Origin: Krasilnikovozyma curviuscula
Taxonomy: Eukaryota; Basidiomycota; Tremellomycetes; Cystofilobasidiales; Mrakiaceae
Assembly: GCA_014825775.1 (NCBI GenBank)
Contig: MVAQ01000184.1
Location: 1 to 43,364, forward strand
Direction: 5' to 3'
DNA: 43,364 bases
The position numbers and the translations under genes were made by a program. Positions 5,912 to 31,814 of the stretch are shown here, in pieces (position 1 is the stretch's first letter; every line of letters starts with the position of its first letter). The notes below the pieces were generated by a model. The model saw nothing but the letters and a program-made list of their open reading frames with translations. It ran no database searches and was not told the origin of the DNA.

Positions 5912-5920
5912 TATATATAA
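5912..5920 (+). promoter_or_regulatory. TATA box of peptide A gene
   Basis: The sequence TATATATAA lies 123 bases before the peptide A ATG. A TATA box at almost the same distance precedes peptide B. A shared ten-base block (TTCGACCACA at 5961-5970; TTTGACCACA at 24839-24848) follows each TATA box by 30-40 bases and may mark the start-site region. This is positional inference; no start site was measured. Confidence 0.55.
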
Positions 5921-6042
5921 GGCGACAGATGGCAAGAACGACGACTTCTTATTCTTTCCCTTCGACCACACTTTGCCAGAACTTCACAGATCGCAATTCG
6001 AGAATCACAGCACTAAAATCAGGTCTACACCATTATTTAAGC

Positions 6043-6442
6043 ATGCGTTCGTCAATTGTAGCCATCGCTGCCGCCTTCGTCTCCTCGAGCGTGGTGCTCG
6101 CGGCCCCTGTTCCTGAAGCTGCTCCCAGTGGCGCTTCAACGTGAGCATGCAGAACGTGTTCTATCTCATTCACATTCGTTGGAGGGCTAATCCGATCTGC
6201 TCCTTTTCAGTGACAACTGGGGCAACGGTCCCGGATCGTTCAACCCTTGGCCAGGAGAGAGGGAAGCTGAGGCTGAGGCCGCTCCCGGTGGCGCTTCAAC
6301 GTGAGCATGCAGAACGTGTTCTATCTCATTCACATTCGTTGGAGGGCTAATCCGATCTGCTCCTTTCAGTGACAACTGGGGTAACGGTCCTGGATCGTTC
6401 AACCCTTGGCCAGGAAAGAGAGATGTCGACGGTGTGAACTAA
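6043..6442 (+). CDS. secreted repeat-peptide precursor A (Qsp1-like)
   Basis: Three exons, 6043-6140, 6211-6300 and 6370-6442, give 86 residues. Residues 1-20 form a signal peptide (basic start, Ala/Val-rich core, likely cut before APVPEAAP). Two copies of DNWGNGPGSFNPWPG follow. Copy 1 is followed by Glu-Arg and an EAEAEA spacer like those trimmed by Ste13-type dipeptidyl aminopeptidase in yeast alpha-factor. Copy 2 is followed by Lys-Arg, a kexin site, and a short acidic tail. There is no C-terminal CAAX box, so this is not a basidiomycete lipopeptide mating pheromone. Peptide B at 24920 is a clear paralogue. The repeats share the Asn-aromatic-Gly start, central Pro-Gly and Pro-Trp end of the C. 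neoformans quorum peptide Qsp1 (comparison from memory). The mature peptide ends are not known. An OPT transporter lies about 9.4 kb downstream. Confidence 0.85.
6121..6416 (+). repeat. tandem exon-intron duplication within peptide A
   Basis: Bases 6121-6257 recur at 6281-6416: the end of one exon (GCTCCC...TTCAAC), a whole intron, and the exon coding the DNWGNGPG peptide. Copies differ by about four substitutions and one deleted T in the intron's pyrimidine tract (70 versus 69 nt). The intron copies (6141-6210, 6301-6369) are otherwise identical, so the duplication is recent or kept similar by gene conversion. Confidence 0.95.
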
Positions 6443-6471
6443 GTCGACGCAAAAGATCTCCATCCGCCGAA

Positions 6472-6499
6472 GCCTTTATCTTGCTTTCAAGATAAAGGC
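6472..6499 (+). terminator. perfect 12-bp stem-loop in the peptide A 3' region
   Basis: GCCTTTATCTTG, loop CTTT, CAAGATAAAGGC: a perfect 12-bp inverted repeat with a 4-base loop that starts 30 bases after the peptide A stop codon. It lies between two converging genes (the TPR gene on the minus strand ends at 6625). It could be an mRNA 3' UTR hairpin, a bidirectional transcription-end element or a chance palindrome; the terminator label is only the nearest available type. Confidence 0.5.
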
Positions 6500-6624
6500 G
6501 ACGCCTAAAATTTCGTATTGCTAGGATACATTGCCAAAGCGCTGTAAAACCCGCTCAGATGTTACCTGTAGTATGACAATCTCGTTGTGAATATAAATAA
6601 CTTTCTTCTCAAAATGAAGATCTG

Positions 6625-9561
6625 CTAAACTACCTGACCAACATGTTCTAAATCTGGTAAGACGGTTGCTCCTAACCATGCCAGCAGAACTTCGACTCTA
6701 GGGCCACTCAAAGGGATATTGATGCTGCTGAAGCCAGCCCTTTTGCCATCCCGCTTAGCCACAGCTTCCTTCTCTGCTTGCTTCTCATTCCTATCCCTCA
6801 GCTTCTGACCAGCTCGCGCGATCAGCGACCTTGCAGCATCCAGTGATTCTAGCAAATTGATTCGTGTTTCACCGTTGGACGATAAGGCTTTCGTTGTGTT
6901 CGTGGTGACAGCAACTGAGCTGGCAACGCTTGAAGGAGTATCACGACCAGATGAAGCTTGAGCAGAAGCATTGGAAGAGGGACCTGCTGCTGATGACGGC
7001 AAGGAGTCGGACGAGGATATGTCACCGATGGAAAGTTTGGCCACTGATGGAATGGGTGTGGGCATAATCATCCCGACATCTTTACCGTTAGGCGGAAGAA
7101 TAGCACCAAATCTCCAGCCTAAGTATAGGCGCTCAAAGATTTCGACAAACTCCGCTTGAGCCATGGATCTCGCCGGTAAGAAGATGGGATACCCTTCCAA
7201 TCCCTCAACGAGGTGAGAGATGCGGATGTGTGCTGAAAGAACTGAGGGAAAATCGCCGAGAAGGAGGTAGTTCAAAAGCATGGAGTAGTGTGCTTCAACT
7301 AAGAGTGGGTGGTAGGTGGTGAAGGTTTGGGTTGTTGGCTTTACTTCGTGAATGGTGCCGTCGACGGATGTTGCGGTTGGACGTGATGAGAATGGACGCG
7401 AGGGATCACTTCTAATCTCATCCAGCACACTTTGATCCAAGAAAGCAGCCTGGCTCTCCATCTGGTCGAAGTGAGCCAGGAACCGCTCGTGGTCCCTGAT
7501 ACTCTTCCGAGCCAGAGTATGTATCTGGTCTCGCCACTTCTCCGTTCCGAACAGCGCGGCATATGCTCTCGCTTTCGTGCTATCCTTTTTTCCTAATGGG
7601 CCATCGGGGTTTCCCACCTCAACACCTCCGTACTTACCACCTGCAATGTTGACCAGCCGCAGCTCAATCCCATCTCCTGGCAGAGACCGCTTTACTCCTT
7701 CCATCTTGATAGCAGCCTCTTCAATTAGCCAGACTGCATGCTGGAGATAACTGCTACCACGAAGGAACAAGCACTGAGGTTCAATGGGCAGAGGGGCTTC
7801 TGGGGCGACACTTGGGTGGACTGGTGCTTGAGTTTTCTTGTCGGAGTTTATTAAACGAAGCTCCATTCCCCCTTCAGAGCTGGAGTCGACGGTGATATTT
7901 TCGCCATGGAAAGATCCTTTGGCCTTCTTCTTGGATTGCAGGCGGGCTTCTTCCTTCAAATGAGCTTGGCGACCCTTTCGAGCACTTCGAGCTTCAGTTA
8001 TAGCATGGGTGAAGTCACGGGCACCAGCGGCATAATCGTCCTTGAAGATTTTTACAACACCTCTGGTCCGGTAGAACTCTAACCGATGAGGGTTCGCCAT
8101 GATAAGGGCGTCCAGAACGTCCGTGGTGGTGTTTTCAGCTACCATTCTGTTGGAATTGCTAATGGCAGCATTGTTAACAAGAGCAACAGACCTGAAGCAA
8201 GATGCAAAGATAGAAGGACGGAATGTACCTAGAAGGAATCTTCTCGTGAAAGAAGTGGACGTAAAGTGCATCTGGATTCGTGGGATCTAGCCCGTAAAAA
8301 AGTAATCTCAAGGCACTTGAGCGAAAAATAAAAAAAGTTACGAAGAAAAAAACGCTCACCGTTCTTCAACACCTTCTCAGCAAGGTCATCCAATGCGCTA
8401 GCTCCCTGCATCACCATCACGCTGGCAGCAATTTCATCCCATTTATAGGCTTCCGCGAGACGCTGACACGCAAGAGCACGCAGCCTGTGCGTTCTGATGG
8501 CAGACATGGACGGCTCTCTTCCATTTTTTGAAGGAGGCATTTCAGTTTGAGAGGTTGATCCGGATATGAGAGAGAGGGAAAAGGCCGTAAGGCCAGAGGC
8601 TGCACGCACGGCTAGATCGGAAGCTAAGGGGATAGACAAGATTCAGTAACTGTTTATCCAAATTTCATCTCAGCAATATAACAAACCTTCGTCAACAAGT
8701 CGACGGATATTCAGTACGCTCCTGAAGACGCCAGGGTCTATCGGCGGCGGTGGGGGGCCCTTTTCTCGTTCTTTTTCCTTCTCTTTTTCTTTTAATCCCG
8801 GGCCACCGAGAAGTTTCATTTCACGAGCAGCAGCAATTGTACCAGACGAAGGGGAGGTAGAAGAACGGTACGACGACGATGGCGACGTCGACAATGTGAC
8901 TGGATCCAGGTTGAGTGTGAGAAGAGAGTCAAGTAGTTCAAGGGGAAGTTGGAGCCATGGTCCCTAGTATCACGTATAATGACCATCAGAATTAAAATGT
9001 TAGACAGAACATAGGGGATGGGACTCACATGGTAAGCAGAGACTAGGTCGGGTCGAAGTTTGTAAAATTGACACCAAGTTCATTTCAGCTCACGATATAA
9101 CAACTAGTCAGAACGTCACTAACTGTGTCTCCAGTGTTTGTTTCTAGAGATACAAAGCACACCACTCTTGTTCTTGCTGTTAGCAATTGCATTCTTTGTC
9201 TTCTCCTGAGAGGTCGAAGCAGCTACGGCCAAAGCAGCTGCAGCCTTGTCTTCTGCAGTGGGTTTCTTCTTCTTGTATTTCTTCTTTTTCTTCTTCTTCT
9301 TAGAGGTTGGTCTGCGCATAGTTCCACCAAAGGAGGGCTGTTAGTCAACTGTCGCTCAGACCAGTAAAATTGACCCGAAAGCCAGCAAACTTTGGGAGAT
9401 AGAACTCACTCTGTAGGCAGAGCAGCATCTTCATCATCTTCTTCATCATCTTCAGCATCAATTTCTACATTCTGCTCTAGTGCTTCATCCGCAGGAGGCG
9501 GTATCGTGCGATGCAAAGCCCCCGCTGCTACGGCAGATTTGTGTCCATAATCGGACATCAT
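6625..9561 (-). CDS. TPR-like protein with poly-Lys N-terminal region
   Basis: My splicing gives ATG 9559-9561, exons 9561-9410, 9311-9163, 9042-9029, 8963-8687, 8623-8360, 8286-8229 and 8191-6625, and 826 residues. The N-terminus has an acidic run (DDEEDDEDAA) followed by a lysine-rich tract (about residues 52-66). Next comes GPWLQLPLELLDSLL. The middle has helical repeats that read like TPRs: HRLRALACQRLAEAYKWDEI, DPTNPDALYVHFFHEKIP and PHRLEFYRTRGVVKIFKDDY. The C-terminal half is partly Ser-rich and ends in LPDLEHVGQVV. No enzyme motif is seen; TPR arrays usually bind partner proteins, so a scaffold role is inference. The 14-nt exon is my least certain junction. The gene is divergent from the Sec7-domain gene (294-base gap between the two ATGs). 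Confidence 0.75.
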
Positions 9562-9855
9562 AGTTGACTGGAACCTTTAAACTATAAGTTTGGTCCAGAT
9601 GAAGCCAGTAGACAGAATAAGTGTCGGTTCTATTTAGTCCATCTTTTTTGTACGCCAGGCTCTTGAACCAAAACAAAAATTGTGCGGTAGAAAACTCGCG
9701 AGGCCTTCCGAGTAATGGGTTGCAGCAAGCCTTGACCTCACCTGCCAAGGAACTCCCAAGGCTCCTCATTTCTGTTCAAGGAAGTCATTTCGAAAGGGCT
9801 CATATTGTTTCATCTATTTTGGACTGAACAGACGAGATCTCACTTGTTTGGAACC

Positions 9856-12800
9856 ATGGCGAGCTCATCTAGAGTTCTCAACGTGGCCAACGCCTCGGAT
9901 GTCTCCCCAGTGCATCTCGTGCTATCCCATATCCAGACCATCACTGGTACCATGCGGAAAAACTCTCGCTGGGCTTCAACATCCTCGCAATCTCGGCCAC
10001 GGAATGCAGACTACGGACAGCTGGCCAATCTCGCTGGCACGTCAAAGGATGGGACCAAAAGCTCCATGAGTGGGGCAGAGGACGGAAAGAGAGAGGTAGG
10101 TAAATGGAGAATGGGTGAATACATGGGTGAAGAAGAGCTCATGGTGGGCTTCATTGACTTGCGAAGACGACTTGGTGACGAAGGAGGTCCGTACACAACC
10201 ACGTTTACATCCTTCATTCTCAGACACTGACCTGATCGCTCTCCTCTCATAGAGCTTCCTTCTTTGCCGATTGTTCTCCATCCGTTCTTGTCCCTCATCA
10301 GATCCCCTCTCACTACCGGTCCAATAACTTCGCTCTCACTGCAATCGCTGCTCTCTCTCCTTACGCTTTTCCCGGATGTCGACACCCCAGACGGCAAATA
10401 CGATCTTACGACTGCTCTCTCTGATGTCTCATCTGCTGTGACTCACTGTAAATTTGAAGCAAGTGACAGTCAGGGCGACGAAGTAGTTCTGTTAAGGATA
10501 TTGGCCATTATTGAAACGGTACTGGAGAGATGGGGTGGAGGTGGAGTAGCTGGAGATGCCGGTGTTGCATTGGGAGATAAGGAGGTCTGCGAAATGCTTG
10601 AGACTGGCTTGGGAATGTGTTGTCAAATGAGATTAAGTGGTAAGTTCCCCTTTGCTCTGATGCCGCCGCTGGTGCTGTCTTTATTCACGTTCCAACCAAT
10701 TCTTAGAAATCTTGAGGAGAGCATCGGAACAGACAGTGCAGAATATGGTCAGAATGGTCTTCAATCACCTCAAACGGATACCAGTCACCGATCAGACAGA
10801 GACTGTAGTGACTACAGACAAAGACATTACTATACCCGCCGAACTCCATTCTATGGACCCAACCGGACTCAGCCTAGGAGGTGCAGTTGCACCATCGAGC
10901 GACGAAAGGGCTCAAGTAAAGCAAAGCGGTGAAACGACGCCTATTGAGAAGTCAGAGCAGGTTGAGGCTGTCATGGAAGTAAAGAACAACACAGATGAAG
11001 GTAACTATTACACTGGGTATATCTCTCTTTTATCTTACTAACTACTGTCGTGGTTCCAGAACCAGTAGTGGACCTTCCCTTCTGTCCTTACGGCGCCGCA
11101 ACTGCAACAGAGTTAATCAGAGTTTTAATCTCTCTACTCAACCCAATGGATCAGCAACACACCGATTCTATGCGAATGGCTGCATTGGGAATCCTGAACA
11201 CTGCTCTTGAAGTTGCTGGGGCATGCATAGGAGAATGGCAAGAAATGCGATCCATGATTTTGGATGAAGGCTGCAAATATCTCTTCCAGTTAACTCGTAG
11301 TGATTCACCCAATCTTCTCAGCATCAGTCTTAAAACCTCAAACACTATGTTTTCAACTATGAGGAAATACCTCAAACCACAACTTGAACTTTTCTTGTCA
11401 TACCTCATCGATCGACTAGCACCACCACCTGCCTTCTCAGCGATCCCGTCTCATGCCCGTGCTTCTATGTCAGTTCCTGGCTCACCTAGTCCATCCCCCA
11501 GTCTCAACGGAGACTCAATCGAATCGTCGATCACCTCAGTTTCCTCTTCACAGCGACCACATGTTCAAGCTCCTATCGTGCCCAACGAGGTCAGAGAGTT
11601 GATGCTCAACGCTCTGAGCCACCTCGCTGGTAAACCAACGTTTATGGTCGATCTCTGGGTCAATTACGACTGTAATATGGAGTGTGAGGATCTCTTCGAA
11701 CGCTCCATGCTTTTCCTTACCAGGGTGCGTCTTGAATTCGCTGTGGACAAGTAGCCGTTATTAAGCTTTGCGAATTCTCTAGGGCGTCTACCCAGTTGTT
11801 CCAACAAACAGAGACTCTCAGTCGGACAACCAGCTGGTATGTTTGGATATCTTGTTGTCGTCAGTCAACCATATGGCCCGCAGGGTAGAAGAGGTACGTC
11901 TTGCCGTCTTGTGTGTGAAGGCTCTTTCTAACATCTTCCATCAAAATCACTTCAAAACCAGAACGAAGACAATTGGCCTTCCGTGTATCCCACCAAAGCA
12001 TCTTTGGCTTTCACCAAGTCTCGCAAGAGCTTGATGCTCGCTGGAGCAGCGAAGTTCAACACGAAGCCAAAGCTTGGTCTTGCGTTCTTGGAAGATAATG
12101 GTCTCCTGGTCACTGAGCCAGGAGCCTCAAAAAGTCGTGCCATAGCTGATTTATTGAAATCAAGTCCCAGAATTGACAAGAAGCTTCTCGGTGACTACAT
12201 ATCTCGTCCAGATAACATCGAAATATTGAAGGAGTTCATCTGTATGTTCGATTTCAAAGGGGTGAGTCTTTCCTTTCTTTTTCTGCCCGTTGTATCTTCC
12301 TGACGAGAAGAGGCCACCTTGTGCTGTGATAGAAATTGGTCGCTGACGCAATGCGTGACTTGCTTGAATCCTTCCGACTTCCTGGAGAGTCTCAACAAAT
12401 CGCTAGAATTACGGAGACATTTGCAGAAATCTACTTTGCCTCAGGCCCAGCTGAAATCAAGTCTCAAGATGCTGTATACGTCCTTGCTTACTCCATCATC
12501 ATGCTCAATACAGATCTCTTCTCTCCTCAAGTGCGAAAAAAAATGGCATTCGAAGACTACAAACGAAACCTACGAGGAGTGAACGCAGACTCAGATTTTT
12601 CAGATGAGTTCCTAGTACGTGGTATGATATCTTATGTTCTCTTTGATAGTTCTGATGGTTTTCTTCTGTAGAGGAATATATACGACTCGATCAAGAGGCG
12701 GGAAATCATTATGCCGGAGGAGCACACTGGACAGTTTGGATTCGACTATGCATGGAAGGAGCTGTTAGCGAGAGCTCCTAGAGCAGGTAAGATTAAGTCC

Positions 12801-15653
12801 CTTGTTTTGTCATCATTGAGTTTTGCTTGCTGACTTTGGCGTTTAAGGTTTGATGCTGGTTTGCGAGACCTCGTCGTTTGACAATGAAATGTTTCAAACA
12901 GTCTCCAAACAGGTTGTTTCAACGATTGCCTATGCGTAAGTTTATTTATTCAGTACTTTCCATCTCTGGAGAGCATTATCAAAAGATTTTTGTCACATTT
13001 CAGGTTTACCACCTTCACAGACGACTATGTCATCCAAAGAGCTATTACTGGATTTAGACAATGTGCTACTCTTGCAGGAAAATTCCAGCTGCCTGAAGTC
13101 TTCGATCATATTGTGATGGCGTTGTCTCAAAGTGAGTTAGAGCTTTTCGATGGCACCTAATGAGTCGTGCTGATCTCCTTCCTTATACAAGCTACTGGCC
13201 TTCTCGATGATCTTGATACTCCATTCCACAACTCCAATAGCCCAGTCGTTGAAGTGGAGGGTCAATCTATCACTGTGTCTTCGCTCTCAGTACGATTCGG
13301 TTTGAACTTCAAGGCTCAGCTGGCCGTCGTTGTTCTCTTCACCATTGCTAATGGAAACGGTCATGCCATTCGAGATGGGTGGTCCCAGGTATGTGCATCC
13401 CCTAGTGACAATTTACACTATTGAACTAAGCTTCTTTTCATATCATCTTTCAGATCTTCGAAATGTATCAAACTCTCTTCCTTCATTCGCTTCTTCCTGC
13501 TCCGATGCTTCAAATGGAGGATTTCTTGGGTGGTACTTCTACAATTCCTCTTCAAGTGGCTGCTCCTGTTACTCCAAGGGAGGAACGGCGGTCCGATGTA
13601 GGCTTGCTATCAACATTATCTTCATACCTTCTCAGTCCGTACGGATCAAGCCTGGACACACTGGGCCTTCCTTCGGCAACAGATGACGAAATTGAAGCCA
13701 CTCTCACTACAATTGATTGCTTGAGCTCTTGCAAATTTGAGGAGCTCTACGGCCAAATGTTGTGAGTGTTACAATACAATTTTAATATCAATTGCTGGCC
13801 ACTACCTGACGGACCAGGGTGATCCCAGAGTACTCGACTTAGAATCCATGGTCTCCGCTGTCAAATCTTTGAAAGACTTAGCCGACAAGAGGTTGTCGGT
13901 GAAACCGATCCGAGCCCCCATTCCATCGAAGGAAGACTACCGATCATCACCTGGTCCAGCTTATCGCGAAGTTCAGAACCCCTACGATCCAGCTTCCGTT
14001 TTCCTCCTTGAGATGCTCGTTAGCATATCGAGCAAAGCCTCTAACCATATCAAGGATACCTGGTAAGGACATCGTGTTTCATTCGTTTGTATTCCTCACC
14101 TCAGAGTTTTTTTGTCCGCAGGCCAATTGTTTTCGACCATCTTTCCCATCTTCTCTCGTCAGCTGGGCAGTTCAGTATTCTACTCATTGAAAGAGCAGTA
14201 GTTGGGCTCCTAAAGTTATGTGTCATTATTTCCGTGGAGGTCAGCCCTCATTTCCTTTCTTCCATTACGCGAACGTGTTCTGACTCGGCTGTGTAATAGG
14301 TATCCCTCCGAGACCAGGTTTTTGTTTCTCTGGATTTGCTGAGGAGTCTACCAACTCCTATTTTGAATTCGGTGTCTGAACAGCTTGTAGCTGGCGTTGC
14401 TCGTGTGCTCGAGAAGGACGCATTGGCTATCAAGTGAGTCGCTATTAGCAACTTTGTACTGTCATTGAAGTCTGATAACACTCTGCTAGATCTCCAACCG
14501 AGTGGGGTCTGATTTTGGCTCTGCTCCGAGGTGCTGTACCTCACCCAGAAGCTTCGAAGAGTGCGCTAGTTTTGGTAGAGAAGGTCATCGCAGGAAATCT
14601 CGGGCCAGGTGTAACTCAGGATAACTTGAACGGAATTGTTGGTATCCTCTCTGAGTTTGCCGGGTTTGAGGGTGTGGCAACAGGGGGAAAGCAGCAGAAG
14701 TCACGACGCGCGGTCGTCCAATCAGCAGCGATGTCAGTCTCGCAACTCTCACATTTTGTAAGAAATTAGTAGATCTGACAGTTTTCTATTTCAGTGAGCC
14801 TGCTGTTGAGCGCGGTCTGAGAGCAGTCGATGCGTTGTTCGAGCTCAAGACTCCAATTACATCGCTGATGTCTACTTCTCCACTTTCCTACGATGAAGGT
14901 AGGCTAATCTTCTCTTTTCCCTCAATGATATTGTGCACTGAGAACCTCGCATAAGCTTGGTGTTGTTTCTGGCTTCCATCACTGCGAGCACTCGGCGTTC
15001 AGGTTGTCCACGGTTGTAGAGAAGTGCGGCAAAGAGCCCTTGGTTATCTGCAAAGAAGCCTGCCAGGATCGCCCTTAGTCAGTCACAGCCACGAAGCTCT
15101 AGCTCTTATTTTCGAACATGTGCTGTTTCCTATGCTCGATGAGTTACTCAAGCCCCAGGTTTACATGTTGGATCCTCAAGGCATGGAGGAGACTCGTTTG
15201 AGAGCGTCGGCTTTGCTTTGCCGTATCTTCCTCGTCTATTTCTCCGAAAAGGGGGATGAGGATATTACTGCTCTTTGGTTGCGTGTAGTGGATGTGTTAG
15301 ATCGATTCATGAACAGTGGAAAACCGGATCAGCTCGTGAGTTTAGACTTTTGAGTTCAATCTTCACCTCAGCTGACCCGTTGTTTTCATAGTACGAAGCC
15401 GTACCGGAATCTCTCAAAAATCTGCTTTTGGTACTCAATACCTCTGGGGTCCTTGTTCCCCCAACTGAGAGTGACACGAGAACCACTGCTGAGATCACAC
15501 TGTGGAATGCGACAAAGGAGCGAATTGACAGATTCTTACCTACGTTCTTCGAAGGTGAGTTTGTAAAACAGATAAAACAAACACTTTACTTAAGTCGGTT
15601 TGTCTGTAGGTATCTTCCCTGCTCCTCTGGAGCCACCGAAAGTGGTGGTCTAG
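9856..15653 (+). CDS. GEA1: Sec7-domain ARF guanine-nucleotide exchange factor, GBF1/Gea type
   Basis: A large multi-exon gene from ATG 9856 to TAG 15651-15653, estimated at about 1,500 residues, similar to yeast Gea1/Gea2. Order: N-terminal DCB region (from HLVLSHIQTITGTMRKNSRW); HUS box (VNYDCNMECEDLFERS, about 11,665-11,712); Sec7 domain (about 12,150-12,790) with FRLPGESQQI, where the Glu codon at 12,387-12,389 is the catalytic 'glutamic finger', then the IIMLNTDLFSPQ motif; then long HDS helical regions to a C-terminus ending PPKVVV. This family loads GTP onto ARF1 at the cis-Golgi and is the brefeldin A target class. The last intron joins E-G to IFPAPLEPP. A BIG1/Sec7p-type assignment is less likely because the Gea-type pattern around the Sec7 domain and the overall length fit GBF1. 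The stop lies 158 bases from the converging OPT gene. Confidence 0.92.
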
Positions 15654-15811
15654 AATATCGAGGGCCAGTTTGACATCAGGCGACATGCGGTAGCTTGCGA
15701 TCAAGCGATTTTCAAACCATATTGCACATTACGATTCCAGTATGACAGCAAAATATAACCACAAAAAGATAGGAGAGATGAGATGGACGAAACATTGACA
15801 GAACAAGCTTG

Positions 15812-18800
15812 TCACGTAGGCCACTGCGACGTGACGTCAGTTACTGTATTAGCGGTTTATGAAGCAAGGGACTTACAGTAGCAGGCCCAAACCCGTCTAC
15901 GGGCGCTGTTTTGAAGGTACCAGTTCCCGCCCAATCCAACGCTGCGTGACGAATGTGTCAGACATAGACCTCATAAGCAGCGGAAACTGTACTTACTGTT
16001 TTGGAACACATTATTACCCCACCAATCTAAGAATATAGTCCCTCCTTTGGGAAGATTCAGCGTCAAGAAGATAATAATAATGCTGATGAAGGTACCGGAG
16101 TCAAGGGCAGCAGCGGTGATATAATTGAACTGGAGGGATGGCCAGAGCGTTGGTCAGTACGCAAGAGGCAAAATAAGGAGAATGGAGGAAGCTAGGCGAG
16201 GAGAATCTTACATTTGACCACCATAAGAACCGTTTACGTCGTATGAGATATTCTGAGAAAGCGAAAGTATACTTGTGAAACAAACGAGGAATGCCTAAGA
16301 ATATATTTTCACTTACGAAATATGAATCCAACAATAACGAACGATGTATAATTGATTCCAGTCGATGGAGGAATTCCAATTGCGGAACCAATAAGGATGG
16401 GAAAGTTGATATTTCGTATCCACGAAGTTGGTCGCTTGATAAAAAAAAAAAAAAAAAAACCCCCAAAAAAAAACCATACACACACAAAACATAAGCAACG
16501 CCCCTTTGCTCTTCGAGAAAAACCATTACACGCACCTTACGAAGCCAGAAATACAGCGGTATCGGTAGCACAGCACCGATGATCATGCAGTACCATTCGG
16601 GATGGTACAAAGCGCCAGGACCAAACTGCCGGGCTGGACCAACAAGGCCCCTTGAAACAAAACGATCAACCTTAAGGAGGATATCTCAGAGGTTGAGGGA
16701 AATGACTGACCAAGTGATGGATGCAGTGAAAAAAGTCTGAGTTTGAGGACAAGTCAACTGTTCTGAATTTGTGGAGCTGCAAGTGTCTGGAACAGTCGCA
16801 AATATCCACCGCTTTACTCCCACCTGCACGATCGCAGAAGAAAGAACACTGATGAGTTGGGCTAAGGCAAGAAGTCAATTACAGAAGTCAGGTGAGAAAT
16901 TTTAATCGACATCATGTGCGATGAGATACGATTATGCAAGACCAGCAGAACTTACCTGTGAATGTGATTCTAGGGGGAATTTTCAAGTAATGGCCGAGTT
17001 TCTGCATCTGGGAGAAGTTACTGCCCGTGATTAAAGATTCAACGGCGATAGATTTGAAGAACTGTAGGGCAGAACCGATATAAAATCAGAGAATTTTTAT
17101 GATTAAAGTCTTCACAGCTACTGACCATTCCAGCGACAGGCATTCCAGGTAGAAGGTAGCCACCAACTATCTGCCCTATTACGTTTATTACAGAGATCTG
17201 CCAAAAAGCAGAATCAAACGAAGACGAAGAGGCATTAAAGGTCAAATCAATAGAAGCTCAGAAGTCCATTCACTTACAGAAACATTGCTCTGAGCAACAA
17301 TGACTCCGTAAGGCATATAGTACACAAGAGCAATCAAGAGTGAGAGTAGCACCCCCCAAACCGGAAGTCCTGAATTGGTGTATCCTTGTACGGCAGCAAT
17401 ACCAAATGCAAACGTTCCGATGCCGAAGCAGAGATACCACCTGCGGGCGACGAAAGAGCATGATTACCTGAGGAACTAAACAATGGGAAGGAAGCAATGA
17501 GAATAAACTTACCACATAGGAACTGGTTTGTACTGTTCCATCAGACGGGAATGAACGTCTGCAGGTTCGAGTGGCTTACCCCTTTTGAACAAGTTCAAGA
17601 AGCTCTGGCCATGGAACAGCAAGAAATGTACCAGGATACAAGTTGTGACGGCAAATGCCAACGTGTACGACATCATGAAAGTCGCCGTAAGGTAGATCGG
17701 TGAATATTTCGAATAAGTATCCAAATCCAGGGTCATGTTATCGTAAACAATATTTGAGTACCCAAACGAGTCTCCAAAGCGATCAAAGGCGCTGTTTGAG
17801 TTGATAGGAAGGTAGGCGAAATTCCAAGCCTAGACAGAGACACTGCAGTCAATTTTCAGATCCTTGGATCCAATAACACAATGTGATACTCACGTTTGTG
17901 TAGTACAAAATAGGAACAATTATCCAATAAAAAAGCAGAAACCCGACGCCCATATTTGCCTCCGCCCACCAAGGTGTGAGCAAAGGATTTCCCATGTAAC
18001 CGATGGTTCCCCAGTCAAATGACAACAGTGACATTCCTAGACCTGTAGCTGATCCGAAAAGTTGATTGACAACAACATTGTCTGCACCTTGATGTTAGCT
18101 GGGATTTAAAAAAGCGATTGATACCACAACTCACTGGGAGCGATCCAGCAGATCCACGAGAAGTATCCAAGTCCTCCAAAGATGAATGCTAAGCCGGCAG
18201 ACCATGCGTCAGCAGGAAACATCATTAAAATATAGAAGGTGCATTCAGTACTCACAAGGAAACCACTCCCATACGAAGATGGCAGTGAACACCACCCAAA
18301 AATATGTAAATCGCGACATGAAACGCGAATTCCCGATGCTGAATTCTTCACCTGCATGGAAAATGTTTAGCAGTGAGCAAGCAGAGAGATTTTGTGGCCA
18401 TATCATTGAAGCAGGCTCGATCTGGGAGTACATGTAATTAGTAGACAGAAGGGGGAAGAGAGGGAACTGAGGAAACTGAGGCTCACAATCATCTTCGTAG
18501 CCAGTCCCGCCATAAACAGTCCCGCGGTATGAGTACACAAGATCATAAGGAACTCGAAACTGCGTATTTGGTCATGTTAGCGAAGTCAGAGACCGAACCA
18601 AAATTGAAACAGGCTCACCCGGCGCCCAACTCGGCGGACCAGAAGGTTTCAGACGCAATTATAGCATTCATTGTATATGGAGTAGTCGTTGTTATTGATC
18701 CAATAATCACAATGAGAGTATGTTCCTTAATGTTGAAAGGGCCAGGATTGAATGAAAACTGTCCCCCTCCCAAGAATCTGGGCACCTCCCACGACCGAAT

Positions 18801-19976
18801 TGGAAGAACCTTTGCCATAATCTTTCCCAGAGGAAAACCAATGATCCTTGAGTCGACAGAAAGAGGTGTTTAGTTTGTAGCAAAAGAGCAATGCGGTCTT
18901 CCAACTCACTGGATTATCAATCCGCTGACAACGGTACCTCCTCCACGCAGTGATAGAAATATATTGATCCCAGCTCCAATCAATCCGAGCGTCAAGCCAA
19001 TGAGCCATGATCTGAAAGTAGAGACTGATTTAGAACAAAAATGACGTTATCAGTGGGAAAGATCAAGGTGGACAGAGAATTGAGCTCCGACCTGGCATGT
19101 CAGGATCGTCCAAGTTCGAGACAGCAGCGTTGACTTCTGGGTAAGGGCTATCTTCTTCAAAAATATCAGCTTGAATTTCACCTCTGCAGTCATACAAGGC
19201 GATCAGTCAGGTAAGACCAAGGATAAGATAAATAACAGCAGAGTGTCGTACTTTTCATCCGCAGTCCAGCCTTGGCCAGCTTTGGTTACTACCCCGTCAG
19301 GAACAGTCGTGACACCGTCAAGAGTGTTAGTGATCCAGGTCCCATTGGATGTTTCCATGCGAGAAGAATCCATTGATTTTCCATCGTCACTCGAAGAAGA
19401 GTACGCAGAGCCGATGAGAGGAGTGAATGAACGCATGCGGATCGCCTGACGCTCCGGATTTCCATTTTTGGACGAATACAGTGAATAGTCGTCACTGTTC
19501 ACAGTACCAGCGCTTTCTGAGGCTTTGAATCTTGCATGGTACTTCTGAGTAGACGGGAAAGGGTTGAGGTAGTCGCTGTTGGGTAGTGACGGATGCAAAG
19601 AAGGGGCGGAAGGATTATTTTTGTAGGTGGTGGATGCTGTCGTAGGAGGTTCTGACGAATAGGTGAACTGGGATGTTGATGGTGAGAAAGAATCGAACTG
19701 GCTGGTCGTCTCAGGAGAAGTGAGTCCTGTCCCTGAAACCGCTCCTGTCTGCGGCCTGTGGAAGGCAAATACGCCTTCCGCATCGTGTTCATCCTCCTCG
19801 TCCTCCTCGTCAAATCCTTCCATATCTTCAGGTTCGAATGTGTTCGGGGCTGGACCAAGACTGCTGATCGAACTGGCAGCCGTATCAGGTCGATAGCTAC
19901 CAGCGGTATCGGGCCTATACCCAGCGGTGCTGGATCGACCTGCAGAAGACGCTGCATTCGTACGGTCTGCAGACAT
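15812..19976 (-). CDS. OPT1: oligopeptide transporter, OPT family
   Basis: ATG 19974-19976, stop TGA 15812-15814, many short introns, estimated 900-1,000 residues. The first about 240 residues are Ser/Thr-rich, with a repeated YRPDTA at residues 20-33 and an acidic run (EDMEGFDEEDEEDEHD). The OPT core follows: GEIQADIFEEDSPYPEV, DDPDMP, NPGPFNIKEHTLIVI (about 18,700-18,755), the PASMIWPQNLSACSLLN segment, SFDWGTIGYMGNPLLTPWW, and the family's typical end GPATWPT, with a dozen or more hydrophobic segments. OPT proteins import small peptides, some glutathione or metal-chelate, by proton symport at the plasma membrane. In C. neoformans an OPT protein imports the secreted peptide Qsp1; here the transporter lies between two Qsp1-like precursor genes, so an equivalent role is inferred. 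The gene symbol is by that analogy. A 16,441-16,470 intron holds a long A/C tract. Confidence 0.9.
16441..16473. repeat. homopolymer A-C-A tract inside an OPT intron
   Basis: About 19 A, 5 C, then 9 A on the plus strand. On the transcribed (minus) strand this is a long T-G-T run just before a splice acceptor, so it acts at most as an oversized pyrimidine tract. Such runs are prone to length errors in sequencing. Confidence 0.8.
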
Positions 19977-20567
19977 TGCTCGGACAAGATGGGTTGAAAG
20001 GAACGTTGGTGATTTTTTGTCTGATCCTATGGCACGTACAATACACAGATCATGTTAATAAAATGAAAAGCAGTTTATCTCGACGAAGGATCAACGCACG
20101 AGGAGCGGGCTACCAAAACCGAGTGCAATTTCTCTATCTCAGCAAGCAATCTCGGGTTGACTGATGTTGAAGATCTTGATGGCAAAAGATAGACGGGAGT
20201 AGGGCAGAAGGACAGCAGTCACTTCGTCTGATATTTCTCAAGTGCAAATCGACCGCCGGGGTCGTCAATGTTGGGTGAGGCGTTCTGGCCGCAGAAGGAA
20301 ATTTGCCTTATTGCGGGTGCAATTTGTTGCAAAAATCAGCTTGAAAATAATGAGCTGCCATCAACATGAGTATGAGAGAGTATTTTATTGTGTGGGCAAT
20401 TTGCTGGTCTTAGAAACAGAGCCATGCAGACAAATCGCCGCCGTCTGGCCTTCTCCTGGTTGCATTGTGTGAATGTCAACTCCTCCCGCTTCCAGAAAGA
20501 TACAGTAAGTTGATACCAAAGCTAGAGGAATAATAGTCCACGAGAATACACTTGCTTGCCAATCATC
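19977..20567. other. OPT gene upstream region and Rpc82 3' flank
   Basis: A 591-base gap between the OPT ATG and the Rpc82 stop, both genes on the minus strand. It should contain the OPT promoter and the Rpc82 3' UTR. I see no further gene and no clear shared motif with the peptide promoters. Confidence 0.5.
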
Positions 20568-22731
20568 TCAGTCAGCTCCAAATCTACTGTTGGCTGTACT
20601 TAAAGGACCACCTGGAAGGTCTCTGAGCACCATGACGTTGAAGTCTACATTTTAATCAATGGAACCACGATCAGCAACATCAGAAAATCTGGGTAGAAAA
20701 GAAACATTACGCACCTGTACGCAACTCTGCCAGCGTCAACTTCATGATCATGTCGTCCAGCTCCTTCAAGCCTTTCTTCTCTTCGTCCGTCAACAAAGCA
20801 CCATTCTCACGGACATCGGTCCGGCTTCTCTTCTCCAGCAGTGCTCTTCGTTGTGACAACTCATAATCTTTTCTTTGAATGAGGTTGGCCATGGTTTTGT
20901 AAAGGTGCGAGATGAGTGCGGTATACGCTCGAGACAAGTCAACGTGCCAGAGGTAGAACGTTCTTGTTATTGCTCTATCAGCCCCTCTTGGGACTTCCTG
21001 AAGTTCCAGAAGTGAAGCTGCGGAGAGTTCTGCGGTAATGACCCTGATGTCCTTCGGGGCTAGCATAGTGACTTTAGAAATCTGCGAAATGGAAGCAACA
21101 GTGGTATTGGTTATCAAATACACGTCCAGAAGAAAGCATCGCTCTTACCTGCTTCTCGTCAATTTTTTCGTGCGCTATCACCACATTGATCACACGTGCC
21201 GCTCCGTCACCAAAACGCTCTCGAACTACAGCGTCCAATACTCTTAACTTCATTCGAGAAGATATGGTTTGAAAATCGACATAGAATGATCCCCCGCTAT
21301 CTCTGCCACTTGAGTTTCTACTGATGAAGATCCCTTTTCGACCGGCTTCCGTCGTGTTGTCTTGGCAAGAGAGGATATTACAGAACTCTGAGATGGTGTC
21401 TGCAAGTACAGGACGAGTTGATGATGACGCTTCCGCTGCTGGGTCTACAATTCCTCGGTAAAGTTTAATGTCAGAGGGAAGGTTCTGAGAAATTTGATGG
21501 ATTGATACAGGTTCTAGTCGGAAGAAAGTGTCAGCTTGCTGAATATCTCGGAGATCCAGTTGCTGCGTACTCACCCGATCTCGATGCCAGCAAAGATATT
21601 TGAGCTTCCTGAGTCGCTTTAAGCATTGCGTCCAAGACAGCAGCGGCCTCTTTATTGAATCTGTCCTCTGCAGCTCTGACAACGAGCTGCCAGACAACGA
21701 GCACGCGCCTTTGTCAGATTCTTTGTCTTCGACAGAAACCTTCTAATAAAACTCACTTGGTTACGCATACCAACCTCGAACTTCTCAAAGTTGACTTTAA
21801 AGTAAACCTCTTCGTCTATCACTTCCTCTTCTTTCTCTTTCCCTTTGGAGTCCTTACTCTTTTTCTTCTTGACGGCGCCTTCGTCTTCACGCTTTCTCTT
21901 GGCCGCAACAAGACCGTTTTGGGGGTTGAGCCATTGTTCTCGTTCTTGTCGGATTTTGAGATCGACTTTGTCCCACGCTGCTCGAAGCTCTTTGGGAGAA
22001 GGGTAACCACTGATTTTTGCCTTCTCTTCACGCAGGTAGGCGATTCGAGTATCACGAGGAGAAACCGAGGAGCTTGGATGGTAGGGTAAGATGAAAGACG
22101 ATTTTAGGAGGTCAACGGTTGTAGAGGTGATAGAGCGAATTTCTAAAACGAAGGTTATGAACAACAAAGCTTGAGAGTCAATCCATGCTAGCAACTGACT
22201 CACTCTTGCTCTGACCAAAAGCTAGATGGCTAAGAATATCTGGTAATCTGAGCTTTCCTTCTGAGAGTATGAGTCGAAGAATATCAGCCGCCTGTGTCGT
22301 TCGAGCGAAGTGTCAATTTGGCAAGAGGGAGGTTTCTGAGCAACAACCTACATTTTCACCACCAAAGTCTCTTCCCATTTCAATGACACGACCTGCCCTA
22401 CTCAGGTCCAGAATGGCTCGTATGTTTGCTTCAAATCCTTCAACGTTGCCAGCATCGGGTCCAGTCCACCAAATCAAATCGTGCTGCAGTAGAGTCACCA
22501 GGGCCGCTCGAGCAAGCTTGGGTGGAGTTCCAGACAGTTGGCATATTGCGGGAAGAGGTAGTCTTCCTCGGTGCAGAAGAGGATGGGCTACACTCTGTGG
22601 AACAGCAGTATTTCGAGTCAGTCCATGATACTTGTAGCAGAGAGCAAGAGATTTAACAGTACCGCCAGGACTTCACCAAAATGATGGAGAACTAGATGGT
22701 GAGCCAGCCTAACTGCTTCCTTATCCGACAT
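20568..22731 (-). CDS. RPC82: RNA polymerase III subunit Rpc82 (RPC3)
   Basis: ATG 22729-22731 (MSDKEAVRLAHHLVLHHFGE), stop TGA 20568-20570, about 600 residues over several exons. Recognised from its order of winged-helix segments: GRLPLPAICQLSGTPPKLAR and ALVTLLQHDLIWWTGP near the start; a Lys-rich loop (KRKREDEGAVKKKKSKDSK) mid-protein; FEKFEVGMRNQ; ISEFCN; FVDFQTISSRM-like segment; and a C-terminal helical part with FYLWHVDLSRAYTALISHL, LLEKRSRTDV and ELDDMIMKLTLAELR. The last short exon adds DFNVMVLRDLPGGP and the stop. In Pol III this subunit forms, with Rpc34 and Rpc31, the subcomplex that contacts TFIIIB during initiation at tRNA and 5S genes. No sign of truncation. Confidence 0.9.
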
Positions 22732-24800
22732 TGTGACACTTCCTATCTAGACTTGTGACCAAACTGGCGGTTAGGGACTCAATTCATAGACCGGAAACTG
22801 GCTGCAGCCAAAAATTCGCATCGAATCAGGGGCGAATTTTCTTGAACTTGAAGAGACCACCTGGATTCAAATTTAGTACAGATGATATTGTGTGCTTCTT
22901 GCCAACTACACAAAAACCTGATGAACTTAGCGTGGATGTCTGAACGCAATTTCTTTAGAGACCACTGAACTAGTGCACTTGCTATACTTGACCTCATCCT
23001 TCATTAAATCGCTTGAATGCATAAGTCAACCAAGAGAAGGTTTACTTTGTTTACCCAGCAGTTGTTCCAAGTTCCAGAAACCAAGATGAAGGTTAGCCAG
23101 GTCTGAGATGCACCTGTCGCGGTCTCGCAGGCGCAACCACGCATTGCAAATAGACTCAAAGAGTTGTGTCAACCACAAGATTGAGGTTTCTAACATTGAG
23201 GATTCTTATTTGCTTGAAAGCGGATTTTTATCTATTTATTTTTTAATGATGGAGCTTCCGATACTTGTAGAGCATCTTCCAGTCGACGAAATCAGGACTT
23301 TCGGAAGGCATAAGGTTACACTGTACTGCTGATCAGTGCTACTGATCGGTGGACTTACTGAATTAAGATCTAGTGCTACAATACTGTACTTGGGTTACAA
23401 GACTCGTCGTGACTATGACGTGAAGATCGATCAAGCATTAAGAGTATTGGTTGGCATGTTCAGATTCTGCTAAGCTTGAGATACATCAATTTTGAGACTG
23501 GAAAGCTCAGGCAGTGGAATTCTAGAAAGGGACAAGTGAACAGAATATATGGACCCCGCTTGCTATTGTGCGCTCACACAGCTGCGGTCGTCCTTTGCTC
23601 CATTGTGAAACCCTTTGATCTTTTTATTTTTCGACAATAGGTTGAAAAATACTCAAATGAACGTGACATAATGTACAAAGGAAGAATATCTTGTGCGTTG
23701 CATAGTGAAACTTTTTTTTTTTTTTTTCTTTTTCAAACCCACATCACCATCAATTTGTGCATTCCTTCCAAAGAAAGAACTAGATGAGTCTTCCTGATTG
23801 CCTTTGGGGCTGAAGGAACTTTTTGGATCTTCTACTCGCTGAAATCAGACGGGATAGCAAATGTCTCTGATGGGGAGTGGAACGTGTGAGCCACACGCCT
23901 ATCGTTCACCTTAGGTTCGAGTGATCTCGTTCAATCTGCTTGTTTTGAGAATGTTTTGAGATTTTTTTGATCTGTTTGAAAGAAACTTGCAAATGTTGTA
24001 CACGCAAGAGCGACACGCATATCTGCCTCCCAATAATAGGCCTCATCTTTCAAAACCTTGTCATTGTAGTATATTGCAGAAAAGATGGTCTACTTCAGAC
24101 TTCTGAAACTCTTGCTTTGCAGTGAATGATGTTCGAAAGCAAAGGAAGAAAAACATGTCTGTGAGATGTTGTCTACGTAAAACTTGCATGAGCCGGTGAT
24201 GATGAGGTCCCTAGACGGTGAGAGGCTGAAAGAAAATGTAAATAACATACATCGTAGTATCAGGATGAGGAGAATTTCAAAACCTCGATGAGAGCCAAAA
24301 TAAAACAATGCGCGCAAGGCGTCAAGGCGTCACCGTGTCGTCGCCTTTACCAGCCACCTATTGGGTTTTGGCATACACATGGAACCCCATATTCCAGGCC
24401 AAAGCGTGAGGATTTAAGGAGGGGGTACTTCTGTGGGAGCTGATGTTAGGTTCAGCCGTCTACCGAGTATGTTGGTCGAGGTTCCTGCACATCAGTTCTA
24501 GCTTTTATGGAAAGAAGGTTCCTAGACAACAACAGCAAGCAAACTCATGTGGAGATCGACAGATAGCCACGTCGTGTGTCTCGCAAAAATAAGAGACAAC
24601 ACAGGAGCGTGGCGCGAGACCGCGGCGGGCAAAAGGCGCTAAGGAAAATCCACGCGGGAAACGTTCGATAAGGGGCTGATTTGCGCGCAGCAGGCGTCAT
24701 GAAAACCTTCCGGAGCAGGGATATTGTGAAAGGATGGTAGACGGAAATTATTACTCCTCCCTTTCTCATACCCGTAACCTTTAGATTTTTCAGGCTGGTT
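22732..24800. other. long gene-free region upstream of peptide B
   Basis: About 2.1 kb between the Rpc82 start and the peptide B TATA box. It contains a T17 run near 23,709-23,725 and short frames with no splice continuity or domain. A GATAAG core occurs near 24,667. Together with the similar region before peptide A, it suggests extended regulatory DNA. No RNA gene was recognised. Confidence 0.4.
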
Positions 24801-24803
24801 CTT

Positions 24804-24810
24804 TATATAA
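24804..24810 (+). promoter_or_regulatory. TATA box of peptide B gene
   Basis: TATATAA lies 110 bases before the peptide B ATG, matching the arrangement before peptide A. TTTGACCACA follows at 24839-24848. Confidence 0.55.
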
Positions 24811-24919
24811 AGGGCTTCCAGTACAACTCCAGTGCCCCTTTGACCACATCGGCACTTCTCTTAGGTTGACAAGTCCCCCTGGTGCACTTTATTCAAAACA
24901 CCCTTGCACCTTCAACAAC

Positions 24920-25243
24920 ATGCGTGTTGCCTCCGTCGCTTTCTCAGTCATTGGTGCTGTCTCCCTCGTGTCTGCTGCTCCAGTTCCAGCTCCCTCTACT
25001 GGTGCGGCCCAACCTGCTAACTGGGGTGGAGGACCAGGTTTCAAAGGCTGGGGTGGAAAGAGAGACGTTGAGGAGAGAGACGCAACTGAGGCCACTACGT
25101 GAGTCCATTCGTCCGATCCGCCGGGCAGTTCAAGAGGCAGCTTGTAACTCATTCTGATGCATTGCTGATATCGCAGTGACAACTGGGGTGGAGGACCAGG
25201 TTTCAAAGGCTGGGGTGGAAAGAGAGACAATGTAGAAGCCTAA
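24920..25243 (+). CDS. secreted repeat-peptide precursor B (Qsp1-like)
   Basis: Two exons, 24920-25098 and 25177-25243, joined across a 78-nt intron, give 81 residues. Residues 1-19 form a signal peptide, with likely cleavage before APVPAPST. Two copies of NWGGGPGFKGWGG follow, each ended by Lys-Arg (a kexin-type site): one in exon 1 after QPA, one in exon 2 after TTD. They are separated by an acidic spacer (DVEERDATEA). The tail is DNVEA; there is no CAAX box. The intron interrupts the codon before Asp-Asn-Trp in the same phase as in peptide A, and exon 2 starts with the same 12 bases (TGACAACTGGGG). The first 11 repeat residues (NWGGGPGFKGW) equal the Qsp1 peptide in length and share its Asn-aromatic-Gly start and Trp end. 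The gene converges on the phosphate-carrier gene. Confidence 0.87.
25019..25228 (+). repeat. 48-bp identical direct repeat in peptide B
   Basis: Bases 25019-25066 and 25181-25228 are identical over 48 positions and encode the NWGGGPGFKGWGGKRD unit in exon 1 and in exon 2. Identity at every third codon position points to a recent duplication or to gene conversion. Confidence 0.95.
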
Positions 25244-30678: not shown

Positions 30679-30833
30679 GTTTTCAATGTCTACCAGCTGG
30701 TGCAAGTTGCTGGTATCTTCAGTCTTCACAGCCTCTAGAATCTCTCCTTCCACACTGACGGCGTCTCTCCCTTTTCCGAACCAATTATTTGAAGAATTTG
30801 CCAGGAATCTATCGACAAGTATTCGAAAGGTAA
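30679..30833. promoter_or_regulatory. bidirectional promoter region
   Basis: Only 155 bases separate the ATG of BZZ1 (-) from the ATG of the deacylase gene (+). Both start sites and any 5' UTRs must lie here or overlap. No TATA box is obvious. Confidence 0.6.
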
Positions 30834-31814
30834 ATGAAGGCTGTCATCACTAGAGTTTCTTCAGCTTCAGTCTCAGGTCAGTTTGTAGCTTGCATTGCCG
30901 CTCCTCTTTGCCGAACTGATTTTACCTTTGTTTACTTAGTCAATGGAGCTGTTGTCTCTTCGATAGGACCAGGGATACTAGCACTGATAGGAATAGGAGC
31001 TAGTGAGAGTTCTTCATCTTTGGACGAGTTGCTACTGAAATGCGGTTAGGTCACTCAAGCATGGAAGGGAACTAACAGCTCTGTGTCTCCACAATAGACG
31101 ATCTACCCCCACACTTTGCCCTACTTGCCTCAAAGATTCTCGCTCTCAAGCTCTTCCCCTCAACTGCGACCGTATCAGACGATAAATCAGACCGGCCAGC
31201 AACGATGTGGAAGAGAACACTCGCTGAAACAAACGAAGAGATACTATGTGTCTCGCAGTTCACGCTCTACTCGAAAGTGAAGAAGGGAAATAAACTTGAC
31301 TTTCATGCTGCTATGGTGATTCAGACAGCGTATACTGATATTCCACCCGTTGACTTTATTGACATATTCTTTCTTACCAAGTCTCCGACTGATGCCAAAG
31401 TCGCTTACGACACGTTTCTCCAGCATCTTAGAGATGGATATGACCCTTCGAAGGTGAAAGGTCAGTCGTCCGATAGGTGCTTCGTTGCATCTTCCTTCAC
31501 TGATGATCATCTTTGGTATAATTAGACGGTATATTCGGCGCCATGGTTTGTCTTCTTCAAATTGCCTTTCATTAACTATGTCTTACTGATATGCTCTTCT
31601 TTTTTTTCTTTAGATGTCAGTAGCAAGTGTAAACGAAGGACCCATTACCATCCTTCTTGACACAGACGACTTCAACCTGCCGCCTCCTCCAAAGCCGCTC
31701 CCACTTCCCAAGAACGGCTCCTCAAACAAGAAACCCATTGCGGAACATACATCTGTCGTTGTTACGTTGGAAGAGGAGATTGGAAAGGTCGTTGTGGGTG
31801 TCCAGGGTTTATAA
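30834..31814 (+). CDS. DTD1: D-aminoacyl-tRNA deacylase
   Basis: ATG 30834, stop TAA 31812-31814, six exons (exon 1 30834-30876). Landmarks of the DTD family occur in order: MKAVITRVSSASVSVNGAVV; IGPGILALIGIGAS; ILALKLFPS; MWKRTLAETNEEILCVSQFT with the SQFT active-site motif; KGNKLDFHAAM; GAMMSVASVNEGPIT with the Gly-Pro motif (NEGPIT instead of the usual N-x-GPVT). The enzyme removes D-amino acids mischarged to tRNA. The C-terminus carries an extra Pro/Lys-rich segment (PPPPKPLPLPKNGSSNKK) followed by about 25 residues, longer than bacterial and yeast forms. Confidence 0.92.

What the first reader, a model, noticed from the sequence alone, without database searches (positions are those of the whole stretch)
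6043..25243. Two Qsp1-like secreted peptide genes flank an oligopeptide transporter
Peptide A (6043-6442) and peptide B (24920-25243) encode paralogous secreted precursors. An OPT transporter (15812-19976) lies between them, all within 20 kb. In Cryptococcus neoformans the secreted peptide Qsp1 is matured outside the cell and taken up by the OPT protein Opt1, and I recall the two genes being neighbours there. This window therefore looks like an expanded form of that locus with two distinct peptide ligands and one importer. The Sec7 and Rpc82 genes in between appear unrelated.
Basis: partly seen in the sequence, partly recalled or inferred. Interest (0 to 1): 0.93.

Follow-up and report, generated by a model that had tools for sequence, protein, structure and literature searches.

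The report
Secreted peptide pair beside Opt1-type importer
A fungus that seems to lie outside the Cryptococcus family carries two genes for small secreted repeat peptides near a relative of the transporter that Cryptococcus neoformans uses to import its quorum-sensing peptide; this may be an older, two-signal version of that system, but no experiment yet shows it.

Summary
Peptide A (6043-6442, 3 exons, 86 aa) and peptide B (24920-25243, 2 exons, 81 aa) are paralogous secreted-type precursors, each with two NWGxGPG units and a shared intron site. A clean 977-aa OPT gene (19976-15812, minus) lies between. The NWGxGPG coding pattern occurs four times in the 22.4-Mb source genome, all in these genes.

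Published identifiers confirm that QSP1 and OPT1 are neighbours in C. neoformans. Trees put the window OPT in the Tremellomycete Opt1 clade, away from proteins named glutathione transporters, with Opt1's N-terminal module.

Against it: a second, slower-evolving Opt1 co-orthologue sits on contig C376, with no such peptide found in 40 kb around it. Qsp1 resembles peptide A only weakly and peptide B not beyond chance. The Qsp1 precursor was not retrieved. Unrelated genes separate the three. Import and signalling are untested.

If real, it puts a Qsp1/Opt1-like system outside Cryptococcaceae, to which one paper says its key components belong.

The parts
6043..6442 (+). Peptide A precursor gene: exons 6043-6140, 6211-6300, 6370-6442; 86 aa
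   Evidence: TATA box 131 bp upstream; hydrophobic N-terminus
6215..6256 (+). Peptide A unit 1, NWGNGPGSFNPWPG, followed by Glu-Arg
6374..6415 (+). Peptide A unit 2, NWGNGPGSFNPWPG, followed by Lys-Arg
6141..6210 (+). Intron 1 of peptide A; its copy at 6301-6369 differs by one T only, so intron and following exon unit were duplicated together or homogenised
5912..5921 (+). TATA box of peptide A
24920..25243 (+). Peptide B precursor gene: exons 24920-25098, 25177-25243; 81 aa
   Evidence: TATA box 116 bp upstream
25019..25057 (+). Peptide B unit 1, NWGGGPGFKGWGG, followed by Lys-Arg
25181..25219 (+). Peptide B unit 2, NWGGGPGFKGWGG, followed by Lys-Arg
24804..24812 (+). TATA box of peptide B
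15812..19976 (-). OPT gene, 19 exons, 977 aa; second member of the Tremellomycete Opt1 clade in this genome
6625..8642 (-). TPR-like gene between A and the ArfGEF (rough limits from ORFs); judged unrelated
   Evidence: TPR_9 below the Pfam cut-off
9736..15673 (+). GBF1/Gea-type ArfGEF with Sec7 domain (rough limits from ORFs); judged unrelated
20707..22672 (-). RPC82, RNA polymerase III subunit (rough limits from ORFs); judged unrelated

Best explanation
The locus encodes a peptide signalling set that works like Qsp1/Opt1. Two paralogous precursors enter the secretory pathway (inferred from sequence). They are cut at dibasic or dibasic-like sites, and in A probably trimmed at X-Ala/X-Pro dipeptides, releasing two copies each of NWGNGPGSFNPW-type (A) and NWGGGPGFKGW-type (B) peptides (inferred). 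The nearby Opt1-family transporter, a diverged duplicate of the conserved copy on C376 (tree shown), imports one or both (inferred from linkage and family), and they act inside the cell (inferred by analogy only).
For: Precursor anatomy, paralogy and shared intron site. The peptide family was found only at this locus in 22.4 Mb. The window OPT lies in the Opt1 clade: 99* for win+C376+Phaffia and 93 for that group with the Tremellales Opt1 clade; 100/99* and 98/95*. N-terminal DTAAS...FAFxRPxT module in both own copies and in 9 of the 120 listed hits, all Cryptococcus, Kwoniella or Phaffia. Opt1 itself identified as P0010 by P358, M484 and W932. QSP1 and OPT1 are neighbours in C. neoformans. 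A random gene falls within 10 kb of one of the two Opt1-type genes in about 0.2% of placements. The motif N-x-G-x(1,2)-P-G-x(2,4)-P-W, which Qsp1 fits, was found in frame only in A's two units, but that motif was widened to include A.
Against: Qsp1 against A scores 33, reached by 171 of 5000 shuffles of A's unit and 348 of 5000 of Qsp1; against B 20, reached by 3455 and 4219 of 5000. A second Opt1-type gene (C376) is the closer match to Opt1 and has no such peptide by motif scan of C376:70001-110000. Unrelated genes lie between peptides and OPT. No 9-mer is shared on the same strand between the A and B promoters (800 bp each). The Opt1 clade sits in a group that spans many Basidiomycota, so membership alone does not predict a peptide signal. 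The 0.2% becomes about 2.6% if any of about 24 OPTs counts.
Confidence: 0.48

Rival explanations
1. A and B are KEX2-processed repeat peptides (KEPs) of the alpha-pheromone-like kind known in Basidiomycota. They act at the cell surface, for example on a receptor, and the linkage with an OPT gene is coincidence.
For: Repeats with KR sites, and in A two runs of X-Ala/X-Pro dipeptides (APVPEAAP, EAEAEAAP) like the STE13 signature. Such KEPs in Basidiomycota are described, including QSWGGCGGRGTPCW in Trichosporon oleaginosus (PMC6339444, passages and sections 9 and 15). Linkage to some OPT by chance is about 2.6%.
Against: The neighbouring OPT is one of only two Opt1-clade genes among about 24 OPT loci. 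A search for STE2-type receptors found none, but nothing rang in its controls either, so it does not show absence.
Confidence: 0.27
2. The peptides are secreted for a non-signalling purpose (surface coating, antimicrobial, host or substrate interaction) and the OPT is a general nutrient peptide or glutathione importer.
For: OPTs in fungi import many substrates (established knowledge), and this genome has about 24 OPT loci (my grouping of 93 exon matches).
Against: Very short precursors with only two small, Gly/Trp-rich, cysteine-free units are small for structural proteins; the OPT carries the Opt1-specific N-terminal module.
Confidence: 0.18
3. A and B are precursors of ribosomally made, modified peptides (dikaritin-type), cut by Kex2 and modified by UstY-type enzymes.
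For: Secreted repeat precursors with KR sites are the usual anatomy of that class (recalled).
Against: No UstYa match in the genome, but the controls were silent too, so this is weak. The window ORF pieces that I scanned (28 references) show no modifying enzyme beyond a methyltransferase at 32.4 kb.
Confidence: 0.05

Closest known systems
Qsp1/Opt1 peptide system of Cryptococcus neoformans
   Same: Secreted-type precursor; peptide starting N-aromatic-G with a P-G and a C-terminal W; an Opt1-clade transporter close by, as QSP1 (CNAG_03012) and OPT1 (CNAG_03013) are neighbours.
   Different: Two paralogous precursors with two units each and KR/ER sites; 5-9 kb and other genes between peptides and OPT; a second Opt1 co-orthologue elsewhere; residue-level similarity to Qsp1 not significant. 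Qsp1 matures through the extracellular protease Pqp1, not tested here.
KEX2-processed repeat proteins (KEPs), including alpha-pheromone-like KEPs of Basidiomycota
   Same: Secreted precursor with identical repeats bounded by KR; STE13-like dipeptides in A.
   Different: Only two units each; the first A unit ends in ER; no receptor known; linked to an Opt1-clade transporter.
Opt1 (CNAG_03013) orthologues
   Same: Same clade and same N-terminal module; 45.5% identity over 954 aligned residues to C. neoformans Opt1.
   Different: Diverged copy: end branch 0.86-0.99 against 0.49-0.59 for C376.

Membership tests
Qsp1 family | Small secreted precursor | tested here: met
   86 and 81 aa, hydrophobic N-termini; prediction by hydropathy only
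Qsp1 family | Mature peptide homologous to NFGAPGGAYPW | tested here: inconclusive
   A weakly above shuffles, B not; motif shared with A only
Qsp1 family | Gene next to an Opt1-type transporter gene | tested here: inconclusive
   Linked at 4.9 and 9.4 kb but not adjacent
Qsp1 family | Precursor architecture like proQsp1 | not tested
   proQsp1 not retrieved: chimeric query found no candidate; Homer 2016 and Tian 2018 not held
Qsp1 family | Maturation by Pqp1, import, intracellular action | not testable with these tools
   needs experiments
Opt1 orthologues | Falls in the clade of C. neoformans Opt1, apart from other OPT subfamilies | tested here: met
   69 rows; 26 rows; co-orthologue with C376, sister to the Tremellales clade, not inside it (AU p 0.0004)
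Opt1 orthologues | N-terminal DTAAS...FAFxRPxT module (defined here, not from print) | tested here: met
Opt1 orthologues | Imports a secreted signal peptide | not testable with these tools
   needs uptake assay
KEP | Secreted protein with identical or near-identical repeats bounded by KEX2 sites | tested here: met
   B fully (two KR); A in part (ER then KR)

The most novel reading that the evidence does not exclude
The Qsp1/Opt1 import-type peptide signalling system is older than Cryptococcaceae. This lineage, near Phaffia by its OPT genes, keeps a duplicated form in which two distinct secreted ligands, each made in two copies, share or compete for one specialised, fast-evolving Opt1 duplicate, while the conserved Opt1 copy serves another role elsewhere.
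Probability: 0.35. Interest if true: 0.78.

Novelty: new variant of a known kind. Interest (0 to 1): 0.6.

Why it matters
[quoted passage not shown] A linked peptide/Opt1-type locus in a lineage that groups with Phaffia would make the origin older and would offer a system in a different fungus for asking how a transporter chooses among signal peptides. My nine paper searches listed no paper reporting Qsp1 relatives outside Cryptococcus; only listings were seen for most of those papers, and subscription journals are mostly not held.

Tried and rejected
Glutathione-type OPT: rejected, because the window OPT lies with Opt1, not with Phellopilus or Sparassis proteins named glutathione transporters. 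Window OPT as the only Opt1 orthologue: rejected because of C376. Window OPT and C376 as a recent exclusive pair: not favoured (win is outside C376+Phaffia, 90 and 91/87) but not rejected (AU p 0.11). A Qsp1-like peptide at C376: motif scan of 40 kb gave one match, interrupted by stops. A more Qsp1-like peptide elsewhere: pattern searches gave A twice and one out-of-frame match on C343, and none with AAT. Protein search with the A+B alignment: 127 candidates, none at E <= 10; the attempt to find proQsp1 also found nothing, so that negative says little about short, unannotated precursors. Shared promoter elements: no 9-mer on the same strand between A and B; A and OPT share one 11-mer, GCTTTTCATTT. 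Intron sequence A against B: local score 11, reached by 35 of 1000 shuffles. Synteny with C. neoformans: only CNAG_03014 (dolichyldiphosphatase) and CNAG_03009 (tyrosinase) could be named from papers; PAP2 was searched, tyrosinase was not. STE2 and UstYa searches were uninformative because nothing rang in the controls. WOPR genes, the class of Liv3: two loci; WOPR genes are general in fungi (recalled), so this was not used.
Full report
What is there. The window is the whole contig C93 of a 22,434,165-base genome in 387 contigs. Peptide A (6043-6442) has three exons and encodes 86 aa; peptide B (24920-25243) has two exons and encodes 81 aa. Both start with a hydrophobic stretch followed by AAPVP, and both lack cysteine. 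A carries NWGNGPGSFNPWPG twice, followed by ER and then KR. B carries NWGGGPGFKGWGG twice, each followed by KR. The precursors are 50% identical, and the intron before DNWG is in phase 2 in both. A's two introns differ by one base, and the two A units differ at the DNA level only by synonymous changes within the 14 residues, so an intron-plus-exon unit was duplicated recently or is kept alike by conversion. TATA boxes lie 131 and 116 bp before the start codons.

Uniqueness. The DNA pattern for NWGxGPG has four matches in the genome, the four units of A and B, with no match of the backward control and about 0.2 expected by base composition. Protein searches of the genome with A and with B matched only these genes (3 and 1 candidates scored). 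A looser motif that also fits Qsp1 matched A's two units and one out-of-frame place on C343, and nothing in the AAT version. That motif was widened to include A, so it is descriptive, not an independent test.

The transporter. The OPT gene (19976-15812, minus) splices into 977 aa, and a homology-guided spliced alignment gave the same internal borders. A search of a protein database listed the best 120 of 364 hits, the best being a Phaffia rhodozyma protein (46% identity over 90% of the query). P0010, from C. neoformans, carries P358, M484 and W932, the residues that PMC8092252 (passages) reports for OPT1 = CNAG_03013; it was the only listed hit longer than 932 aa with all three, so I take it as Opt1. 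Searching the genome with it gave its best matches on C376, not in the window. I modelled the C376 gene and 22 other OPT loci. A tree of 69 rows (window, C376, 21 of the 22 other models, 46 of the 120 listed hits) puts window OPT + C376 + Phaffia together (99*), sister to the Tremellales clade that holds Opt1 (93), with proteins named glutathione transporters outside. A careful tree of 26 rows agrees (100/99* and 98/95*). The window copy has the longer branch. Both own copies carry a DTAAS...FAFxRPxT module that a strict pattern finds in 9 of the 120 listed hits, all from Phaffia, Cryptococcus or Kwoniella.

Placement of the organism. The source is not named. Both own Opt1-type genes group with Phaffia and outside the Tremellales rows, so I infer a Tremellomycete near Cystofilobasidiales; this rests on one gene family.

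The known system. In C. neoformans QSP1 is CNAG_03012 (PMC8561399, passages) and OPT1 is CNAG_03013; the two share an intergenic region on chromosome 3 (PMC2848560; PMC8187385; see also PMC3618354; one passage each). Qsp1 is secreted as a pro-peptide, matured by Pqp1, imported through Opt1, and acts inside the cell (PMC7537855, passages; PMC6571750, passages). PMC9790007 (passages) states that key components have been shown in Cryptococcaceae and infers recent origin, citing Homer 2016, which is not held.

How strong is the link. Against Qsp1, A's unit scores 33, and shuffles reach that in 171 of 5000 and 348 of 5000 cases; B scores 20, which most shuffles reach (3455 and 4219 of 5000). Among 17,878 six-frame windows from 208,840 bases, A ties for the top with one unrelated place on L039. 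Sequence alone therefore does not make A and B Qsp1 homologues. Linkage is the stronger evidence: about 0.2% by chance for the two Opt1-type genes, about 2.6% for any of about 24 OPTs, under uniform placement and a 10-kb limit chosen after the fact. The C376 copy has no such peptide by motif scan within C376:70001-110000. Peptides and OPT are separated by a TPR-like gene, a GBF1-type ArfGEF and RPC82. No shared promoter element stood out.

Most likely mechanism. Secretion, cutting at KR (and perhaps ER) sites, trimming of X-Ala/X-Pro dipeptides in A, release of short Trp-rich peptides, and re-import by the nearby Opt1 duplicate. Gene structures, paralogy, uniqueness and the OPT clade are shown; secretion and processing are inferred from sequence; import and intracellular action are inferred by analogy. 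The main rival is a pair of alpha-pheromone-like KEPs that act at the surface, a kind reported in Basidiomycota (PMC6339444, passages and two sections).

Verdict. A real and unusual locus.

Noticed in passing
L038 (G000:C376:85001-95000); gene model C376:91376-87116, minus: A second Opt1-clade OPT with the same N-terminal module, closer to C. neoformans Opt1 than the window copy, with no NWG-type peptide in the 40 kb scanned.
   Followed up: yes
G000, 24 OPT loci by my grouping of 93 exon matches: A large OPT family for a 22.4-Mb genome, including a close pair on C309 (branches 0.13 each) and two loci side by side on C126.
   Followed up: partly
window 9736-15673: The gene read as Sec7 has a GBF1-like TPR_28 match as well as the Sec7 domain, so it is a GBF1/Gea-type ArfGEF.
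   Followed up: partly
window 28066-30843, minus: A gene with a C1 domain and an SH3 domain; from memory this looks like a Bzz1-type F-BAR protein, but no F-BAR match was obtained.
   Followed up: no
window 6251-6262 and 6410-6421: In peptide A the first unit ends in Glu-Arg and the second in Lys-Arg, so one of the two dibasic sites may be weak or lost.
   Followed up: no
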